From: Carallia brachiata
Lineage: Eukaryota > Streptophyta > Magnoliopsida > Malpighiales > Rhizophoraceae
Direction of reading: 5' to 3'
Assembly: GCA_021464245.1 (NCBI GenBank)
Contig: JADCRB010000119.1
Span: forward strand, 124,001-188,000
Length of the DNA stretch: 64,000 nucleotides
Position 1 is the first letter of the stretch, and each line of letters begins with the position of its first letter. The translations under genes and the position numbers were made by a program. This document shows, one piece after another, positions 51,395 through 61,917 of the stretch. Under the pieces are notes generated by a model. The model was given only the letters and a program-made list of their open reading frames with translations. It was not told the origin of the DNA and did not search any database.

Positions 51395-53425
51395 TTAGTG
51401 TTTCCCTTTACTCTTTGATCCAGGTGGAATCTTTCCATACGCCCAGAGCCGTCCTCGTGACAAGCTGAGTTCAGCCTTGCGGCGCCTTCTCTTAACATTC
51501 CTGGATAGGCTGGTCAGATCAACATTTGATTCCTCAATCTTTTGACTCTTCTTTCCACTCTTCTCATCCTTTCCTTTTCCTCGGAGACGCTCCTTAAGCA
51601 TCGTCTTATACCGGTAGCGCTGATTGTTAGGTACTTTCCATTCCTTCTCCTTGTAGGTTGCAAGCTTTTTGACAGAAACATATTGATTCAAGTCCTTGTC
51701 ATCAGACATCAATATTTCATATGTCTTCAATCCATATCTATTAGGATCTACTTTAGCATACTTGAACCTCGTCTTCAAGTCCCCAATTGTGCCTTCATAA
51801 TCCAACTTATAATATTCCTCCATCATCTCTTCTTTAGCTTTCTTCACAAGTGACATTTTACGTTTCCTCTTCCGCTTGCTTTCCTCAGTCCTCTCCTCTT
51901 CTCCATGATCTTCTGCTTCTCCGTCTTCCTCCTCTTCTTTGTCATTATCCTCCTCAACATCATTCTTAGATTTTCGTTCTAAGACTCTTTTCCTTGCAGC
52001 TAAAAATCCATCACTAGAATCAAGCACATCCCAATCTTTAGGAAGTCCAAGAATCTCATCCTCTTTATCAAAATCTGGCTTCCCAATTTCAGCATCTTCA
52101 TCACTATCGTGACCAAAATGTGGGTCCACATCCTCTGCCTCATAATATTTGTTATTGAAAGCCTTCTTCATCATCTTATCATACTCCTCGGGATCAAATT
52201 CATCCTCCAGGTCATCTAAATCCAACAGGCAATCATTGTCATCCTTAATTCCAGCAGCATCCATAACTTTTTTCATCTTTTCCTTCATCTCCTTCTTCTT
52301 CACATTCTTCAAGTGCTTCAGCTCCTCCTTCCTCTCCATCTCCGCAATCTTCAAGTTCTCTTCCTTGCGCTGCCTCTGACTTTTTCTTGCACTCGGCTTC
52401 TTCCTCACGGACCCTTCGACTTTTCTGGAATGGCCCATAACCCTGTCTCCTGCATTCTCCTGATACCTAAACTTATAGTAGTTCTCCTCGTACTCTTCTT
52501 GCTTCTCAATGTCTTCCTCATCTCTCGACAGGTCAGACACGTCATCATCCTCAAAAACGGCTTTCCCATCGTTATGGCCCTTATCAACCCACATCTTATT
52601 CAGGAAAAATTCCTTCAAAAACAAGTTGTTCTCATCCAACTCCTCCTCCTGACCAAAATACTCGCTCAACTTCTTCTCAAAATCTACATTGTCACCGTCA
52701 GCAATGTTCTCATTGTAGTTCTTCTCTTTGACTTTCAAGAAACCCCCATCACCGTCCTGCTGCTCCTCAGCATCATGGATCGCATCCAATAGCGCATTCT
52801 TTAGCTCCCGTTGTTCTTCATCATAAGTCTTATATTTCTTATTATTCTTGGGCTCATCGTTTTCATCAAATTCAGGGCCTTCATCCATCAAATGCTGGGC
52901 AACTACATCCTTTAAATACATAGACTTCTTCTTTTTATTCTTCTTATTCATGTTTCCCTCGTCATTATCCCCTTCCTCCTCCCTTTCTCCATTGATAGCA
53001 TCATCAGGAGCAATATCACTATCGGCATCACTGCCATCAGAGCCGAAAAGGCTGACGTTCTGATAGATAGAGGGATCACGGTTGCGTACCTTGATTAAAT
53101 TCTTAAAGAACTCCACGTCCTCTTTTTTGCCTAACTTTGCAACTTCGTTATTGCCGTCATAATCATCGTCGTCGCCAGGGGAGGAGGAGGATTCAGAATC
53201 TGAAAGGTCGTCGTCGCCGATGAGGCCTTTCTTTTGGAGCTCCTGGAATCTGTGCAAATCCTCCCTCTCCTTGTTATGCTCATATCTCCTTGCGAATTCC
53301 TCGTCTATTTCTATCTTGGAAATGTCGGCTGAGGACATACCTGAGGGTTCCGCGAAGAGATCAAGCTTGACGCGGCGGCCGGCGTTGCTCAGAGCTGCGA
53401 GGCGGCGCTCTTTTGTCTTTCCCAT
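51395..53425 (-). CDS. KRI1: KRI1-like ribosome biogenesis protein
   Basis: KRI1 is a nucleolar protein needed for 40S ribosomal subunit assembly (known from yeast Kri1). One uninterrupted frame of 676 aa from ATG 53425 (MGKTKERRLAAL) to TAA 51395. The N-terminal Kri1 motif is seen: EFARRYEHNKEREDLHRFQE at about 51-70. The middle is highly charged, with long Asp/Glu and Lys stretches predicted to be helical or disordered. The C-terminal Kri1 domain reads VDPNRYGLKTYEILMSDDKDL, LNQYVSVKKLATY and EKEWKVPNNQRYRYKTMLK. The C-terminus is basic, as expected for nucleolar targeting. An open extension of 9 codons upstream of the ATG has no ATG. Confidence 0.9.
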   Translation of the reverse strand: MGKTKERRLAALSNAGRRVKLDLFAEPSGMSSADISKIEIDEEFARRYEHNKEREDLHRFQELQKKGLIGDDDLSDSESSSSPGDDDDYDGNNEVAKLGKKEDVEFFKNLIKVRNRDPSIYQNVSLFGSDGSDADSDIAPDDAINGEREEEGDNDEGNMNKKNKKKKSMYLKDVVAQHLMDEGPEFDENDEPKNNKKYKTYDEEQRELKNALLDAIHDAEEQQDGDGGFLKVKEKNYNENIADGDNVDFEKKLSEYFGQEEELDENNLFLKEFFLNKMWVDKGHNDGKAVFEDDDVSDLSRDEEDIEKQEEYEENYYKFRYQENAGDRVMGHSRKVEGSVRKKPSARKSQRQRKEENLKIAEMERKEELKHLKNVKKKEMKEKMKKVMDAAGIKDDNDCLLDLDDLEDEFDPEEYDKMMKKAFNNKYYEAEDVDPHFGHDSDEDAEIGKPDFDKEDEILGLPKDWDVLDSSDGFLAARKRVLERKSKNDVEEDNDKEEEEDGEAEDHGEEERTEESKRKRKRKMSLVKKAKEEMMEEYYKLDYEGTIGDLKTRFKYAKVDPNRYGLKTYEILMSDDKDLNQYVSVKKLATYKEKEWKVPNNQRYRYKTMLKERLRGKGKDEKSGKKSQKIEESNVDLTSLSRNVKRRRRKAELSLSRGRLWAYGKIPPGSKSKGKH

Positions 53426-54346
53426 CCCTAACGATAACCTTTCTTTACCCAAATTAATTACAATTCTCTTCGATTCTTCTTTGCTTTTTTTTTTTCTTGT
53501 TTTTTTTTTGGTGTTCTGTCTCTTCTAGTTCCAGTATTCTCTTCGATTTTCTAATATTACTTCCTTCCTCTGGAAATCGAAATTGGAAACAAACTGAAAT
53601 TTGAATTGATATTTCCTCCGACAAAAAAAATTGAGAGAGAGAAACTTGAATTGAAATCCCAAACGCCAATCTTCTCGATATAAAGAGTACAAGGAAAACG
53701 ATGCGTCGCGGGCCGCATGATCCAACTGCAGAGGGCGTCCGGGCCAGGTACGCCGATCAGTGATTGTTCTCGTATTTCCCTTTTTGCCCCTTTTTGGTGT
53801 ACTGTTCAACATTCAAATTTAATTTATTTCTTGTAAAAACAATACCATTTCACCCAAAGTCATTAGGCCTGAGGAATGCCTTTTCTCGCGGATCTTTAAA
53901 CTTCTTCTCCAAATAAGAATTTGGTACCACCAACAAGCGTTGGTTCGGATGGCAGGTGTTTGTCACTGTTTAATCAGACTTTTGTTACTCTTTGAAGTTC
54001 TGTCTGGGTCAGTTTAAATTAATCAGTTTATTAGATTGCACACTGAACAGTGTTAGACAAAAAAAAAAAAAGAATTCGGTATCTCTAACATAAATACTAT
54101 TTTTTTTTAACTTTTAAAGTATCGGTCTAAAGATTTTAAATACAATAAATTTAAAATCAAATATTGTAGTTGATGACCATGAGCTTCTAGGCCGAGTAAG
54201 TTGGATTGCACACTCACAAGACAATCTATCTAACTGGGAGTCCGCAGCAGCACTTAAATGCATAAACCGATAAGTAAATAGGTAAATTTAAGATCAACTG
54301 TCTCAACATCGTCGTCGTAGTTGTCGTCGAACAGTTTCAACCCCTT
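53426..54346. other. KRI1 5' flank and left flank of the Copia element
   Basis: T-rich leader, an A-run at about 54059-54071 and, just left of the element, a GTCGTCGTAGTTGTCGTCG stretch. No gene confirmed (see finding on insertion site). Confidence 0.45.
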
Positions 54347-55793
54347 TGTTGGTCCCTTCGGTGAAGCCTAGAGGGGGGTGAATAGGCTTTACCAATGAAA
54401 TCCTCAAATAAAAATTTCTGCAAATGAATGTAAACAAGAGATTAAAAGAAATACAATACCGATTTTTACAAGGTTCACCAAATGGCTACGTGCTTGGTCT
54501 TCTCAACAATCACTCTTTTGGAGATTCTTGAGAGTTCAACTATGGGGTGCCTTTGGGCGCACCAATCACCACCGTACAATTTACAAGAAGACTCCGCAAA
54601 CACCTTTGCGTCCGCCTTCAAAACGCTTGTTGCAGAAGTCCCACTAGCCAACACCACTTTCCCTTTTCTTTTAGGTTTTCCTTCTTGGAGTTCAACCCTA
54701 ACTCCTTACAAGATAGTCCTCACAAGTCCCACTTGAGAGCTCTCAGCTATTCTCACAATGTATTACAATACAAATGAAATTTACTAGCTTGAATGCTAGT
54801 TTTACAATGAAAGCACTTAGAGCAAAGAAAGCCTTTTTGCCTTGAGAGAGATTGTACAATACTTGAATATGACTTTCTGCCCCTGTAAAACATCTTCAAG
54901 TGATGTTTTAGTAGCTGCAAGATAGGTTAGCAACTTGTTAGAGCCGTTGCTATGGGTTGCACATGCATACTTTGTTGTTTTCCTCTTCACAGCTTTGCAT
55001 TGATTCTCTTGTCTGACACTTTCTGGTAGAACGACTATAACTTGGTATAGACAACTTAAAAAATTACGATTCCTTTTTTTATGTTTAGTAGACTGTCAGA
55101 GCTCTCTACCCACAAAATTTGACTATTTATGAATGAGTATAGCATAGTCAAATAAATGTTGGAATACTGACGTTAAAGTTCCGTTAGACAGTCTGCACAC
55201 TTTTAGTAGAACGATAATATCTTGCAGATAGCTTTGAATTTTGATGTGATTCTTTTTGCATTGATCAATAGAAAGAACAGGGAATCTACACACAAAATTT
55301 CACAATCAAATTCGTTGTGTGCTCGTCTAGGCAGCCGTTGCAATTCACTCCATGTGCACTGAAGGTTCCTGACAGCTTGTACCCTCTTGGTATAAAATTC
55401 ATAAGTTTTTCTCTAGGGCTCCAAAAATTGCACGACCAAGCTCATTTGAAACTAGACTTATAGTCCTGCAAAAATATATATATTTTAGGCCCAAAATATA
55501 TCTCAAGTGAGTAAGTTTGGTACCTGCAATCTGCCCTAACAGATTTACTCTTGTGTTGTCTTTCTAAGATAGTAGTTTAATAAGGCCCAATGTGATCTTT
55601 CACTTCCATGCACGTGTAAGATGGCATATGTATACCTCTTTGCACTTCTTGAACCTGAATTGTATACTTGAAGAACATACAAATGAAATCCACTTGTACT
55701 TATGTTAGATTGGTTCATAGCTCATTATCAAACCATGAATTCACACTTATTAACAATTCCTTAATGTATGCATGGGGTGTGAATTGTCCAACA
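54347..55793 (-). repeat. 3' LTR (minus orientation)
   Basis: 1447 bp, near-identical to 60478-61912 with scattered substitutions and small indels (a few per cent by eye, not computed). Plus-strand open frames inside it are mirrored in the other LTR and look chance. Confidence 0.95.
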
Positions 55794-55808
55794 ATCTCCC
55801 CCTTTTTG
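55794..55808 (-). other. Polypurine tract
   Basis: The complement reads AAAAAGGGGGAGATT directly before the 3' LTR TGTTGG, typical of Copia elements. Confidence 0.9.
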
Positions 55809-56387
55809 ATGATGACAAAACCTTTAAGATAGATGCTCCCTTAATCTAAGTTTCCTCTAGAAATGCTCTTTCTTGATGACTCTTTCTTAATTTTCTCCCC
55901 ATTTTTATCATCAATAAAAATGGTTGAAACAAAAAATGTGAACGCTAACTAGGTTAAGAGATTGAGACTCCCCCCTTTATGTATGCATGTATCACAAGTT
56001 CACATTTACAATTAGGCATATAAGTTATCATAACTTTAAGACTCCCCTTTAATGTATGCATGAATATAAGTTCACATTTCACTAAAACAAAAAATGTGTA
56101 TTTACTTCATTAATTTGAAATAATTTCATTGAAAATTTGGCCACTTTGTTATGTCATAAAATGGCAAGACATAATCACAAACATTCATGCAAAATTAAGC
56201 AAATGAAGACATTCAAGCATATGCTAATGCATGGGGTGTGACATGCCCAATTTTCTTCTTAGATAACAAAAATGATCAATCAAGAGGTCTTAATTCAAAA
56301 ATTGGGTCACTATGTTACCAAAAATCTAATGTGGATCACTACCTTTAAAAATAGTTCATGAACAGGTCAAAAATATTACCATAGTAA

Positions 56388-56754
56388 ATTGCTGACGTGG
56401 AAGTCTAGCTCAGCAATCAATTGCTTACGTGGAAGCTGACATGACACGCCTAGTCAGAAAGGTTGCTGACATAGCACACAGTCAGAAAAGTCACGAACGG
56501 TCAGACGGAAGTAGCTGATAGTTAGGTGAAAGTGGAGGACAACTGGCCCATTATTACCGCAGACAATCAGGCGTAATTTTCGGATCGTCAGGCATAAAGT
56601 GAGAATCGAGGGTGATAAGCATTAAGCCGGAATCTTTCATCTTTCATCTTTCATTTGTTTCCAAAGTTTCATCTTTCAGATCAACCATATTTCATCTTTC
56701 ATCTTTGTTGTTTCCAGAATCTTAAAATTTTCACTCACCTTTCAGATCAACAAA
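56388..56754 (+). promoter_or_regulatory. Possible promoter/leader of the WOX-like gene
   Basis: Two 16-bp near-copies, ATTGCTGACGTGGAAG (56388-56403) and ATTGCTTACGTGGAAG (56420-56435), contain ACGTGG cores like bZIP sites. A TTTCATC repeat block (about 56634-56708) and a doubled TTTCAGATCAAC precede the ATG. Confidence 0.35.
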
Positions 56755-57366
56755 ATGAGACCACCATCAAGCCATCAAAACTTGGAGATTGGAGACTCTT
56801 CCAATTCTAGATGGAGACCAGAACCAGAGCAATTGCAAATCTTGGAAGATGTTTTTTGTGGCATTGAAGGAGCTTGTCTCACATCACGACAACTTGCTCA
56901 GCTTGCCTCACTGCTGAGACAATATGGTCCAGTTCAGGCAAGTCATATTAGAGTATAGATGCAGAATCGAAGGCGCGATCTGAGAAGAGCCGTAGCGCCT
57001 CCTGTTGTAGATCTCAACAGTGCAGGTTCTATTTTGCCAAATGTTACTGGAATGGTTTCTCACGAAAATCCCAACCAGCATCACCTACCACCAGGGATTT
57101 TCTCCTTCCCATTTCAAATCTTTGATGTGGGTCAAAGACCAAACTCCCATAAGTATTTTTACCCAGTAGGGAGCATCATTCCAGTAAGCAGTAGTTCAGT
57201 CGACCCTCCTCATGAGGAAGAAGGGAAAACACTCACTCTCTTTCCTCTTTATCCAGGCGATGTCAATCAGCAAAGAAATCCCGGTAGCGTCAACATTGCT
57301 ATCCCACTGAATGATGAGGACCCTGTGGATTTAGAACTACGCCTTGGACCTTACATGAGGGACTGA
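56755..57366 (+). pseudogene. WUSCHEL-related homeobox (WOX)-like gene inside the Copia element, one in-frame stop
   Basis: One exon, 204 codons counting the final stop, antisense to the element. Residues about 19-78 form a WOX-type homeodomain: SRWRPEPEQLQILEDVF, then LRQYGPVQASHIRV, then QNRRRDLRRA in helix 3. A TAG at 56956-56958 sits where the near-invariant Trp of helix 3 belongs, and an ATG follows directly, so two shorter frames (56755-56958 and 56959-57366) result. The C-terminal part has a WUS-box (TLTLFPLYP) and an EAR repression motif (DLELRL) just before the end. These three parts together are diagnostic of WOX transcription factors, which control stem cells and organ growth. No intron is seen, which fits a retrocopy. 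Helix 3 Asn and Arg are kept. Function, if any, is unknown. Confidence 0.8.
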
Positions 57367-58079
57367 AAGGGGTAAGATCTGAAGATGTTTTCTGGCATTG
57401 GAATATGGATTCTAATATGCAAATCTTTACTAGAATGTATGTATGTGCAGGGATGTTGGTTTGTCTTGTAGTGCATAGTACATGCATGAGTAATGGTTGG
57501 TGTATGAATAAGTGGTTTGTGTTATTTGTTTTGTAAGTGTGTACTTATCAATTTTGGCAAGTCTACTTGTACTGCTGAGATAAAAAAGTGGGGCAAAATG
57601 TAAAACCTTGTGAAAGTGTGTGAGATGTCGATTTTGGGCTCTTTCCCTGATCTAGAAAATGAAATATGTATCTGTTTTATTCTAAGCACATGCATCACAC
57701 AACTAATTCTAAAGCATTGGCAAACCTCTTACTAAATTAAGCTTAGATGATTATGGAATGATACTCATGCTAGAATTTCCAAGCTTTCATATTTGTACTA
57801 ACAGTAGCTTTATGAGGTTTGAAAAGCTTCCTTTTTTAGCTCACAATTTTGTTCAAACGGATCTCTTTTGGGCAACATCACCAAGACTCAATTTAAGCTT
57901 GTTTCCTTTCTCAATAGGATAGCTCTGACACTTCTTAAAGAATCAATCATAAGTCTACCTGTATAACTCCAAATCATATCCCGTTTCTTCCATTTGAAAG
58001 TAGACTCATAGAGCTTTTAATACATGTAAAGATCATGGTCTGATTCCACTCCAGTTAGCCGTGGTGCCTTCTGGAAGTT

Positions 58080-58390
58080 GACTGATCCTGCTGGACGGGA
58101 CAAGCTGTACATTCTTTAGTATTTTGGCAATATCTCCTTCTACAGAACTCCAATTTGCGTGATTCTGGTCAATTTAGAAACTAGACAGAATTATATTTGT
58201 ATGCATATAAAACTCAACAGCTAGTTCCTTCCCATTTGGTCGCAATCATCTCTTAAAGTGGACTGATCCTGTCTGCCTTGACAGATTGAGCACCTTCAGT
58301 TCATAGACTATAACTTCCTCCAACAATATCCAATTGAGATGATTCTTGAGAATTCAGAAACTAGACAGAATTATCTTTCTAACCGTATAT
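58080..58390. repeat. Diverged tandem duplication inside the Copia interior
   Basis: Two blocks about 180 bp apart share ACTGATCCTG, AACT(T)CC..CAA and TTAGAAACTAGACAGAATTA-like words (58080-58205 and 58262-58385). Non-coding. Confidence 0.5.
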
Positions 58391-58609
58391 AGCACATTGT
58401 ATAGTTCATCTCCATGTGAGCAAACGAGCCTTTTAAAGTTGACCATACTGGATAGTACTTACACTGAATGTGACCAATTATCAATGGTTGCCTTATGCTA
58501 GCATTGCTTCCGTTTCAATTGATGTTTATTTGATTAAATCATTTAACTACACACTTAAATAAACATATTAGTAACTCTCAATGTTTAACAATCATCAAAA
58601 CCAAAAAAA

Positions 58610-58960
58610 ATGAAACCTTAGGGTTTTAACAAGCATATACACATTTCCTTTTCTTTTTTCTAAAAATCTCAATGCATTAGTATGGGGATCATATACTTCA
58701 AAAGTCATGGGTTTGAATAATACCTCAAAACCTTTATCACACAATTGACTAATGCTAATTAAGTTGTGCTTTAAACCACTTACCAAAGCAACATCCTTAA
58801 TAAAACTTGATACATTATTACCTATAGTGCCAACTCCAATGATTTTGCCTTTTCTATTGTCTCCAAACGTGACACATCCTCCATCCTTGCTTTTTAGTGT
58901 GGAGAAAAATGATGCTTCTCCGGTCATATGCCTTGCACATCCACTATCAAGTACCAAATG
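58610..58960 (-). pseudogene. Copia protease / GAG-pre-integrase remnant
   Basis: The minus frame contains the retropepsin site LDSGCARHMTG, then GGCVTFGDNRKGKIIGVGTI and the pre-integrase part LKHNLISISQLCDKGFEVLF. Similarity stops at about 58610, where integrase should follow; instead unrelated non-coding DNA begins. Confidence 0.85.
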
Positions 58961-59189
58961 ACATCTTCTTTAAAATATGTTGCCTTCAAGCACTTTTCCA
59001 CCTACAAACAAGATGTAGAATATTTTGGTACCCATATCTTTTTGGGTCCTTCAATGTTACAACAATCATTCTTCTTCATTGAATCTTTTACCATCCATAC
59101 TTGTTTGAATTTACTAGGCTTTGTCCAAACTTTAAAAGATGACACATAATTTTTAATGTAGGACTTGTTGGGATCACTAGGTCTTCTAA

Positions 59190-60422
59190 GTCTACAATCA
59201 TGAAATGTGTGTCCTTTTTTATGACAATAAAAACATGATACAACATTTTTCTTCTCTTTTATGGATTAGTCTTTTTTATGAGTATCCAAACCGGATTTGT
59301 TAAAAAATTTCTTTTGACAAGATAACATCTCATCTAACTTATTGCTACCTAATGTGAATTTTGAAAAGATTTTCTAAATTTGAATTCTTTTCTTTAAGGT
59401 CCTCAACTTCTTTTTCCAAAGCATGATGTAAATTGTCTTTGATGTTAGGGCCTCTTTAGATATTGCAAGCTCTTGTTTAAAAAATTTAACTCACTACAAG
59501 TTGATTTATGATCTAATTTAGCCTTTTCAAGTTCTTCTTTTAAAAGACTATTTTCCAAACAATTTCATCTTTCTCTAAAAAAAGTTTTTCACATGCTTTC
59601 TTTTGCTCTTTATATTGTTTACATTTCCTTTTAAAAGTGATCAATAAATCATCAAAAGCTTCTCTAAGTTCTTCATAAGAGGGAAGATCCATTACCTCAT
59701 TGTCACTTTCATCGTCATCATCTAGGGCCATGAGTGCTACATTTTTTGAGGATGGTTCTACTTGTGGTAATGCACTTCTCCTTTTGAGTTTGATCTCATG
59801 AGTCATCAAGGACCCAAGTAACTCTTCCATGGTTAGCTCCTCCACGTTGTGAGTTTCTTCAATGGCATTAATCTTCATTTCGTATTCCTCATTCATCGAA
59901 TTCATTAATTTCTGCACAAGTTACCCTTTCCAAACACTTTGCCAAGATCGGTTAGTCCATTAGCAATAATCATGAGTCTATCATACACACTTTTAACCGA
60001 TTCATTTGGTCTCATAGTGAAAAGTTCAAAGTCTTTCATAAGCATGCCAAGTTTAACTTTCTAACTTTTAATGTCCCTTCATTTGAGAGACACAATTATT
60101 CCAAATTTCCTTAGCATTTTTACAATGTTTGATGGTGTTATATTCACTTCTAGCTATGGACGTTTTCAAATAATAATATGCTCTTTCATCTATTTGGTTT
60201 TTCTTATAGTCCTCTTCATCCCATTTTCCTATTGGTTTTCTCTCAAGGTTTTACTCCCTTATCATCAACAACTTCTTCCTTAGGCACATATGGTCCCTCT
60301 TCTACACTTTGCCAAACTTTCATCCCCTTAAATTTAAGATAACTTTCCATATGATCTTTATAGTATTGAAAATCACTACCATCAAAGAAAGGTCTCTTGT
60401 TTTCATTAGATGAGGATTCCAT
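59190..60422 (-). pseudogene. Copia gag remnant (UBN2-type) with zinc knuckle
   Basis: The minus strand opens at ATG 60422 (MESSSNENKRPFFDG) and runs into stops. Further pieces read AYYYLKTSIARSEYNTIKHC and EELLGSLMTHEIKLKRR (frame 59917-59540), matching UBN2/DUF4219 gag of plant Copia elements. A CCHC zinc knuckle, C-x2-C-x4-H-x4-C, is at 59194-59235. Several stops and shifts break the frame, so no full gag is made. Confidence 0.85.
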
Positions 60423-60463
60423 GGGGATCCCTCAAGGATGTTAAGCCTTACAAGTGAGGTTAA

Positions 60464-60475
60464 GCTCTGATACCA
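60464..60475 (-). other. Primer binding site, initiator tRNA-Met type
   Basis: The complement reads TGGTATCAGAGC, the standard tRNA-iMet complement used by plant Copia elements, two bases from the LTR end. Confidence 0.95.
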
Positions 60476-60477
60476 AA

Positions 60478-61912
60478 TGTTGGTCCCTTGGGTGAAGCCT
60501 AGAGGGGGGGTGAATAGGCTTTACCAATGAAATCCTCAAATAAAAATTTCTGCAAATGAATGTAAACAAGAGATTGAAAGAAATACAATACCGATTTTTA
60601 CAAGGTTCACCAAATGGCTACGTCCTTGGTCTTCTCAACAATCCTCTTTGGAGATTCTTGAGAGTTCAACTATGGGGTGCCTTTGGGCGCACCAATCACC
60701 ACCGTACAGTTTACAAGAAGACTCCGCAAACACCCTTGCGTCCGCCTTCAAAACGCTTGTTGCAGAAGTCCCACTAGCCAACACCACTTTCCCTTTTCTT
60801 TTAGGTTTTCCTTCTTGGAGTTCAACCCTAACTCCTTACAAGATGATCTTCACAAGTCCCACTTGAGAGCTCTCACCTATTCTCACAATGTATTACAATA
60901 CAAATAAAATTTACTAGCTTGAATGCTAGTTTTACAATGAAAGCACTTAGAGCAAAGAAAGCCTTTTTCCTTAGAGAGATTGTGCAATACTTGAATATGA
61001 CTTTTCTCTGTAAAACATCTTCAAGTGATGTTTAGTAGCTGCAAGATAGGTTAGCAACTTGTTAGAGCCGTTGCATGGGTTGCACATGCATACTTTGTTG
61101 TTTTCCTCTTCACAGCTTTGCATTGATTCTCTTGTCTGACACCTTCTGGTAGAACGGCTATAACTTGGTACAGACAGCTTGAAAAATTATGATTCCTTTT
61201 TTTCTATTTAGTAGACTGTCAGAGCTCTCTACCCACAAAATTTGACTATTTATGAATGAGTATAGCATAGTCAAATAAATGTTGGAATACTAACGTTAAA
61301 GTTTCGTCAGACAGTCTGCACACTTTTAGTAGAACAGTAATATCTTGCAGATGGCTTTGAATTTTGATGTGATTCTTTTTGCATTGATCAAAAAACAGAA
61401 CAGGAATCTACACACAAAATTTCACATCAAATTCGTGTGTGCTCTTCTAGGCAGCCGTTGCAATTCACTCCATGTGCACTGAAGGTTCCTGACAGCTGTA
61501 CCCTCTTGGTATAAAATTCATAAGTTTTTCTCTAGGGCTCCAAAAATTGCACGACCAAACTCATTTGAAACTAGACTTATAGTCCTGCAAAAATATATAT
61601 ATTTTAGGCCCAAAATATATCTCAAGTGAGTAAGTTTGGTACCTGCAATCTGCCCTAACAGATTTGCTCTTGTGCTGTCTTTCTAAGATAGTAGCTTAAT
61701 AAGGGCCAATGTGATCTTTCACTTCCATGCACGTGTAAGATGGCATATGTATACCTCTTTGCACTTCTTGAACCTGAATTGTATACTTGAAGAACATACA
61801 AATGAAATCCACTTGTACTTATGTTAGATTGGTTCATAACTCATTATCAAAACATGAATTCACACTTAGTAACAATTTCTTAATGTATGCATGAGGTGTG
61901 AATTGTCCAACA
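60478..61912 (-). repeat. 5' LTR (minus orientation)
   Basis: 1435 bp, partner of 54347-55793, next to the primer binding site. Confidence 0.95.
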
Positions 61913-61917
61913 CCCTT

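What the first reader, a model, noticed from the sequence alone, without database searches (positions are those of the whole stretch)
56755..57366. A WUSCHEL-type homeobox gene carried inside a Copia retrotransposon
Seen: homeodomain, WUS-box and EAR motif in one intronless stretch, inside a complete LTR-LTR element and antisense to it, in place of integrase and RT. Known: plant retroelements can transduce cellular gene pieces, but a nearly full-length developmental regulator with all its signature motifs is unusual. Inference: if other copies lack the stop, the element family could be spreading a WOX gene with its own promoter.
Basis: partly seen in the sequence, partly recalled or inferred. 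Interest (0 to 1): 0.86.

Follow-up and report, generated by a model that had tools for sequence, protein, structure and literature searches.

The report
WUSCHEL-like gene riding in plant retrotransposons
A plant stem-cell regulator gene of the WUSCHEL type sits as a built-in part of two families of jumping genes in this plant genome and is still readable in many copies, which suggests the jumping genes made use of a copy of the plant's own developmental switch.

Summary
Window 54347-61912 is one complete Copia-type insertion: LTRs 96.2% alike, perfect 5-bp duplication CCCTT, primer site, polypurine tract, broken gag, no integrase or RT match. Antisense inside it lies an intronless WOX frame with homeodomain, WUS-box and EAR motif, stopped by one TAG at the homeodomain Trp codon.

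It is no lone capture. The frame occurs at 33 or more places in the 337.5-Mb genome. Of 19 others read, 16 are the same element with gag and antisense WOX; five of six tested, window included, have their own duplication. One more copy is open. Inner tree branches carry fewer amino-acid changes than tips (16 of 26 rows: N/S 1.29 vs 2.91, p 2e-5; all 26: 1.89 vs 3.13, p 0.0015).

A second, Gypsy-type family carries a related WOX in sense orientation between integrase and 3' LTR; 150 of 2307 candidates were scored, 111 without an internal stop.

So the WOX is a standing, probably selected element gene. Its function (a WUS-like repressor acting on host or element) is inferred, not shown.

The parts
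54342..54346 (.). target-site duplication, left copy (CCCTT)
54347..55793 (-). LTR (3' LTR in element orientation), 1447 bp, TG..CA
55794..55807 (-). polypurine tract (reads AAAAAGGGGGAGAT on minus strand)
55808..56754 (.). element 3' region and WOX leader, shared in whole or part by the family copies read
56755..57366 (+). WOX frame, ATG to stop, 203 codons, antisense to gag
56806..56994 (+). homeodomain (codons 18-80)
56956..56958 (+). premature TAG at the homeodomain helix-3 Trp position
57229..57246 (+). WUS-box TLTLFP
57331..57345 (+). EAR-like motif LELRL
57367..58594 (.). interior stretch of unknown origin, shared in whole or part by family copies; holds two diverged 61-bp repeats (58149-58209, 58329-58389)
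58595..58969 (-). Pol_BBD piece (start of Copia pol)
59002..60431 (-). broken gag (Retrotran_gag_2 pieces at 59540-59920 and 60068-60250)
60464..60475 (-). primer binding site TGGTATCAGAGC
60478..61912 (-). LTR (5' LTR in element orientation), 1435 bp
61913..61917 (.). target-site duplication, right copy (CCCTT)

Best explanation
A WUS-clade WOX mRNA of a host ancestor was captured by an LTR retrotransposon and became a standing accessory gene. In family A (the window, Copia-type, no integrase or RT found, so presumably moved by enzymes supplied in trans) it sits antisense between gag/PR and the 3' LTR. In family B (Gypsy-type, with integrase) it sits in sense between integrase and the 3' LTR. 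While elements were moving, the protein was under purifying selection; after insertion each copy decays neutrally. The window copy is such a dead copy, stopped at the helix-3 Trp. Shown: anatomy, multicopy insertion as a unit. Supported by statistics: shared ancestry of the A and B proteins, selection on family A. Inferred: the protein enters the nucleus, binds DNA and represses through its WUS-box/EAR motif (TOPLESS recruitment, recalled from WUS work), either regulating the element or biasing the host cell towards a stem-cell state in which new insertions reach the germ line. In family A helix 3 is altered (Phe49 to Met/Ile, numbering recalled), so its DNA targets probably differ from those of WUS.
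For: Complete element with TSD. 33 places by my count; 16 of 19 read besides the window have WOX and gag in the window's arrangement. Insertions: 5 of 6 tested (window included) have their own TSD; LTR K2P 0.030-0.140 in 15 elements, some on part of the LTR, two twin pairs among them. Family A selection: 16 rows, inner S72 N93 vs tips S125 N364, p 2.2e-5, stop gains 0 vs 32; shifted frames p 0.21 and 0.11; with the open copy L050, p 6.9e-5, stop gains 1 vs 30; window-L050 dN/dS 0.50. Family B: P0002 207 aa, WUSCHEL 1.3e-18, Homeodomain 1.2e-12; integrase on the same strand in 9 of 11 loci and PPT plus LTR start in 9 of 11; integrase core above cut-off and Ty3 Gag-Pol matched at 1.6e-13; LTRs 98% alike 9.67 kb apart around the WOX of L041. 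A and B proteins align end to end, E 2e-18; their C-terminal parts score 35.8 bits, against at most 25.4 for the database WOX C-termini tested. In seven of nine host WOX loci a WUS-box was found, separated from the homeodomain by in-frame stops; the element versions have no such gap.
Against: Pairwise codon-position counts show no clear third-position excess in A or B. With all 26 A rows the contrast is weaker (1.89 vs 3.13, p 0.0015, stop gains 10 vs 34) and a shifted frame also differs, in the opposite direction (p 0.006). Without C>T and G>A changes the coding frame gives p 0.02 (16 rows) or 0.083 (26 rows), and in 26 rows a shifted frame differs in the same direction (p 0.035). With L050: 17 rows shifted frames p 0.15 and 0.094; 27 rows coding p 0.0086, shifted p 0.42 and 0.023 (opposite direction). 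The 16-row set was chosen after the 26-row result. Family B: 11 rows lean the other way (2.22 inner, 1.57 tips); 17 rows 1.67 vs 2.10, p 0.42. No expression, DNA-binding or protein data. Common origin of A and B rests on a 63-column tree (98/92, bootstrap not settled, no outgroup) and C-terminal similarity; long branches could mislead. No nucleotide similarity joins A and B outside the homeodomain.
Confidence: 0.75

Rival explanations
1. Passenger: an ancestral element picked up a WOX cDNA by chance, and the gene was only copied along without doing anything.
For: In one search the family A copies read are broken by stops or frame changes, the window's among them; pairwise codon-position counts are flat; family B inner-versus-tip test not significant. 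LTR-captured genes are common in plants (672 in rice, 1343 in sorghum; PMC3726574, passages seen).
Against: Fewer amino-acid changes and no stop gains on inner branches of the 16-row family A set, in the coding frame only; motifs kept between A and B although synonymous sites are saturated; open frames in both families; two different element types carry it.
Confidence: 0.2
2. Old host WOX locus with LTRs inserted on both sides, or WOX inserted later into this one copy.
For: Nothing beyond the fact that the window alone shows a single copy.
Against: Perfect CCCTT duplication around the whole unit; same insert in the same arrangement in 16 of 19 other places read; no A-run over 6 beside the WOX.
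Confidence: 0.02
3. A and B captured host WOX genes separately, twice.
For: Different element types and opposite orientations; no nucleotide similarity outside the homeodomain; helix 3 differs (RVWMQN vs FYWFQN).
Against: Tree branch separating A+B from the 23 host and other plant WOX rows, 98/92; C-terminal halves more alike than to the database WOX C-termini tested.
Confidence: 0.25
4. The WOX stretch acts as RNA: antisense transcript or siRNA source against the element or against host WUS.
For: Antisense aORFs of plant elements have been proposed to give dsRNA (PMC7264820, parts 1 and 2 of 3 read).
Against: The selection signal follows the protein frame; nucleotide similarity of A to the nine host WOX loci is one 44-bp stretch at 77% with host WOX3, little for siRNA targeting of WUS; family B is in sense.
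Confidence: 0.07

Closest known systems
Antisense additional ORFs (aORF-3R) of plant LTR retrotransposons: maize Grande gene23, rice RIRE2, Silene Retand, PvRetro13 (PMC7264820, two of three parts read)
   Same: An extra gene between pol and 3' LTR, antisense, kept in most copies of a family; [quoted passage not shown]
   Different: The review says gene sequences like these ORFs are lacking outside elements (it notes an SMC domain in PvRetro13 and a transposase-28 domain in Retand); here the ORF is a WUS-clade homeobox gene, in a Copia-type element without integrase/RT
Bs1 of maize and other LTR elements that transduced host genes (PMC7264820; PMC3726574, passages)
   Same: Host gene sequence inside an LTR element
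   Different: Per the review transduced genes are usually in sense and in one or a few copies; here at least 33 places, antisense, with signs of selection
[quoted passage not shown]
   Same: Position and orientation of the family B gene
   Different: Encodes a homeodomain protein with repression motifs, not a membrane protein
Host WUSCHEL / WOX3 genes
   Same: Homeodomain with the extra loop residue (shared with WUS and a few other WOX), WUS-box, C-terminal EAR as in WUS
   Different: Intronless; the family B homeodomains read are 56-60% identical to STENOFOLIA against 67-90% for the nine host WOX genes; helix 3 altered in family A

Membership tests
WUS-clade WOX protein | WOX-type homeodomain | tested here: met
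   WUSCHEL/STENOFOLIA are the PDB matches; Pfam met for family B (1.2e-12), below cut-off for the window copy (18 vs 22.9 bits)
WUS-clade WOX protein | WUS-box TLxLFP | tested here: met
   TLTLFP (window), TLSLFP (P0002)
WUS-clade WOX protein | C-terminal EAR-like motif (as in WUS itself) | tested here: met
   LELRL, LELHL near the C-terminus; one host WUS (L036) ends SLELSLNSYTGQLSPDYL
WUS-clade WOX protein | placement among WUS-clade genes in a tree | tested here: inconclusive
   A+B lie outside all 23 sampled WUS-clade rows; WOX9/13-type outgroups not included
WUS-clade WOX protein | transcription factor activity in meristems | not testable with these tools
   no expression data
Copia-type LTR element (family A) | LTRs with TG..CA, 5-bp TSD, PBS, PPT | tested here: met
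Copia-type LTR element (family A) | Copia gag | tested here: met
   Retrotran_gag_2 36.1 bits over cut-off 27, Pol_BBD 61.8 over 27
autonomous Ty1/Copia element | pol with integrase before RT | tested here: not met
   no integrase or RT profile match; filed only as a non-autonomous Copia-type element
aORF-bearing LTR retrotransposons | extra ORF present in most family copies and conserved like element genes | tested here: inconclusive
   16 of 19 other places read and signs of selection, but copies were found by searching with the WOX, so elements lacking it are under-sampled; the one interior fetched from the LTR search also had it
Ty3/Gypsy element (family B) | Ty3/retrovirus-type integrase | tested here: met
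   rve 42.8 and 42.9 bits over cut-off 32.6 in L044 and L039 (28.4 in L041); Ty3 Gag-Pol 1.6e-13, PFV integrase 2.6e-18
Ty3/Gypsy element (family B) | integrase last in pol, after RT | tested here: inconclusive
   WOX, then PPT and LTR follow the integrase; the stretch upstream of it was not read. RT was seen only in L047, on the opposite strand. Tat-like lineage is recalled, not tested
Ty3/Gypsy element (family B) | LTR pair | tested here: met
   98% alike, 9.67 kb apart around the WOX of L041

The most novel reading that the evidence does not exclude
Plant LTR retrotransposons have taken over a host stem-cell master regulator as an accessory gene, much as acute retroviruses took oncogenes: the element-made WUS-like repressor keeps or makes the host cell stem-cell-like (or lifts silencing there), so that transposition happens in cells that give rise to gametes. 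Two different element types in one genome share it, one of them amplified to at least 150 and perhaps thousands of copies.
Probability: 0.3. Interest if true: 0.96.

Novelty: new variant of a known kind. Interest (0 to 1): 0.88.

Why it matters
The origin and function of most antisense extra ORFs of plant retrotransposons are unknown (PMC7264820). Here the origin is plain (a WUS-clade homeobox gene) and open copies exist, so function can be tested directly. It would also be a developmental regulator mobilised in bulk, a source of WOX paralogues and of mis-annotated 'WOX family expansions'. Transposable-element RNA is transiently raised in Arabidopsis meristems before flower induction (PMC7560203, abstract read), which gives the stem-cell hypothesis a concrete place to look.

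Tried and rejected
LTRs around an old locus: rejected by the TSD and the other copies. Nested retrocopy by a LINE: no A-run over 6 and no shared exact flanking direct repeat over 9 bp beside the WOX. TIR transposon inside: only weak inverted repeats. WUS-site (TTCA/TGAA) enrichment: leader TTCA 9 vs 5.6 expected, P 0.08; LTR TGAA 18 vs 10.8, no P computed; the rest near or below expectation. First protein search with P0001 found nothing although the database does hold plant WOX. Viral contigs: no relative. Pairwise codon-position test: flat. The script returned no rows (faulty pattern) and was redone. PF00046 genome search did not complete, so WOX9/11/13-type host genes are not in the tree. 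Literature: searches found no paper; searches list papers, and in what I saw none reports a WOX gene inside an LTR element (listings; passages of PMC5471313, PMC5501002, PMC6482515, PMC11963269, PMC11728184, PMC13128126, PMC3726574; one section of PMC5501002; two of three parts of PMC7264820; outline and abstract of PMC7560203). The library holds open-licence papers only, so this is not proof of absence.

Rows dropped: ten of 26 family A rows were left out (six of seven tandem-array units, four presumed twins) after seeing the 26-row result; both results are given. L014_1 was left out of these tests as too short. In one search L039 (twin of L038) was left out. In one search the A rows are the 15 whose homeodomain reads in one frame with at most one stop.

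Full report
1. The window copy. The plus frame 56755-57366 reads 203 codons from ATG to stop with one internal TAG at codon 68. In the PDB sequence set it matches STENOFOLIA (1.9e-5) and WUSCHEL (5.2e-5) and no other homeodomain. TLTLFP and LELRL follow in the places of the WUS-box and EAR motif; the pair arose in 5e-5 of shuffles. Pfam's homeodomain model scores 18 bits, below its cut-off of 22.9.

2. The element. LTRs 54347-55793 and 60478-61912 differ by 35 transitions and 11 transversions in 1434 sites (K2P 0.033: 1.3 to 11 My for rates of 1.3e-8 to 1.5e-9, rates recalled). CCCTT flanks both ends. PBS and PPT are in place on the minus strand. Gag and Pol_BBD are on the minus strand, gag broken; no integrase or RT profile matched. 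It is therefore a non-autonomous Copia-type element with an antisense WOX.

3. It is a family. Searching the window's own genome (337.5 Mb, 164 contigs) with the WOX stretch gave 47 matches, by my count at 33 places including the window; 40 of 111 candidates were scored. In 16 of 19, WOX and gag recur in the window's arrangement; both outer LTRs are at least partly in view in 14 of these 16. The other three are a tandem array beside an LTR on C19 (L014/L015) and two places on C132 without gag (L012, L013). TSDs: 5 of 6 tested, window included, all different; none found for L011. LTR K2P is 0.030-0.140 in 15 elements, some on part of the LTR only and two twin pairs among them. So LTRs and WOX have moved together repeatedly over time. 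One more element interior (L050, reached by the LTR search) has a gag-strand frame of 352 aa and a WOX frame of 195 aa, both open.

4. Selection on family A. Changes were counted by parsimony on a tree of the WOX stretch. In 16 of 26 rows (twins and array units reduced) inner branches carry 72 synonymous and 93 amino-acid changes, tips 125 and 364 (Fisher 2.2e-5); stop gains 0 and 32; shifted frames p 0.21 and 0.11. With all 26 rows: 110/208 vs 127/397, p 0.0015, stop gains 10 and 34; one shifted frame differs the other way (p 0.006). Leaving out C>T and G>A: p 0.02 (16 rows), 0.083 (26 rows), and in 26 rows one shifted frame differs in the same direction (p 0.035). With L050 added: p 6.9e-5 (17 rows, stop gains 1 and 30, shifted frames p 0.15 and 0.094) and 0.0086 (27 rows, stop gains 8 and 35, shifted frames p 0.42 and 0.023, the latter in the opposite direction); window against L050 dN/dS 0.50 over 194 codons. 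Raw pairwise codon-position rates show no such signal, as expected if most change is post-insertion decay. I read this as purifying selection while elements were active, followed by neutral decay; the evidence is good, not overwhelming.

5. A second, larger family. A search with the STENOFOLIA homeodomain returned nine host WOX matches at 67-90% identity and below them 141 matches at 49-60% (150 of 1342 candidates scored); I read the first 11 of these (L038-L048). L041 gives a 207-aa ATG-stop protein (P0002): WUSCHEL 1.3e-18, STENOFOLIA 1.2e-16, Homeodomain 1.2e-12. P0002 against the genome: 150 of 2307 candidates scored; most match residues 1-206 or 1-207, the shortest 13-206 and 1-195; by my count 111 have no internal stop and 39 have, and 23 places share one identical score. 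These are best-scoring places, so the intact share is biased upward. In 9 of 11 loci an integrase reading lies upstream on the same strand, and in 9 of 11 GAAGTGGGGGCATT followed by TGTAAA lies about 1 kb downstream. The integrase core scores above Pfam's cut-off in L044 and L039 and matches Ty3 Gag-Pol at 1.6e-13. For L041 the LTR recurs 9.67 kb upstream at 98% identity, the two enclosing the WOX. LTR pairs 9.3-9.7 kb apart also enclose WOX places on C19, C113 and C145 (my reading). Family B is thus a Gypsy-type element with a sense WOX between integrase and 3' LTR; its gag and RT were not read. Its selection test is not significant (17 rows: 33/55 vs 72/151, p 0.42, stop gains 0 and 8), while 28 of 28 pairs of eight chosen intact copies have dN/dS 0.35-0.87.

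6. Kinship. P0001 and P0002 align end to end (31%, 2e-18). In the homeodomain tree a branch of support 98/92 separates A plus B from nine host and 14 other plant WOX rows, with few columns, an unsettled bootstrap and no outgroup. The C-terminal parts of A and B match at 48% over 46 aa, 35.8 bits, against at most 25.4 bits for the database WOX C-termini compared (host C-termini were not compared). Both keep an extra loop residue seen in WUS and in 9 of the 120 database rows. Among the nine host loci the nearest DNA to the B homeodomain is WUS (6.6e-11). In the seven host WOX loci where a WUS-box was found, homeodomain and box are 257-1462 bp apart with 3-29 in-frame stops between, so the intronless element versions most likely come from mRNA. 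In 5.8 billion proteins P0002 finds 235 relatives; among the 120 listed none matches beyond 67% of it, and none has its WFQNRR or C-terminal LELxLGP. The element type therefore looks lineage-specific, with the caveat that repeat-derived proteins are often not annotated.

7. Mechanism. Shown: a WOX frame that travels inside two element families. Supported: it was kept as a protein in at least family A. Inferred: nuclear DNA binding and repression. Helix 3 of family A keeps Trp (13 of 15 readable copies) and Asn (15 of 15) but has Met (12) or Ile (3) for the usual Phe (homeodomain positions 48, 51 and 49 by recalled numbering), so altered specificity is likely. In the window copy the TAG removes the end of helix 3, the WUS-box and the EAR motif, so it is a dead copy. 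For the per-lineage LTR divergence of 0.016, 0.24 new stops are expected in the frame, so the stop is compatible with loss after insertion.

8. Comparison. The review of additional ORFs says transduced genes are usually in sense and in one or few copies, and that gene sequences like the antisense aORFs are lacking outside elements (PMC7264820, two of three parts read). This case departs from both. It is therefore a new variant of a known kind.

Noticed in passing
L014:3337-9670 and L015:249-2087 (C19:1.603-1.612 Mb): Tandem array of eight WOX units (the first partial), about 1.2 kb each with element tail and leader, beside an LTR: the WOX region itself has been amplified in tandem.
   Followed up: partly
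L022/L023, L019/L021 (also L025/L026): Pairs of loci on different contigs with the same insertion; the first two pairs have reverse-complement flanks, the third the same nested LTR: retained haplotigs or segmental duplicates, so copy counts are somewhat inflated.
   Followed up: partly
L050 (C49:554300-558600): A family A element interior with open gag-strand frame (352 aa) and open antisense WOX (195 aa).
   Followed up: yes
L012, L013 (C132:13.40 and 13.43 Mb): Two WOX copies 27 kb apart with the leader but no gag in view, followed by a 296-bp LTR piece; L012 has an open frame of 197 codons over the WOX.
   Followed up: no
window 51395-53524 (-): Open frame of 709 aa matching KRI1-like families (Kri1 and Kri1_C), about 0.8 kb from the element's left end.
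   Followed up: no
window 58149-58209 and 58329-58389: Two diverged copies (79%) of a 61-bp repeat in the element interior, also seen in other family copies; origin unknown.
   Followed up: no
own genome, LTR of family A: 311 LTR candidates against 111 WOX candidates: there may be family members without WOX or many solo LTRs; not resolved.
   Followed up: no
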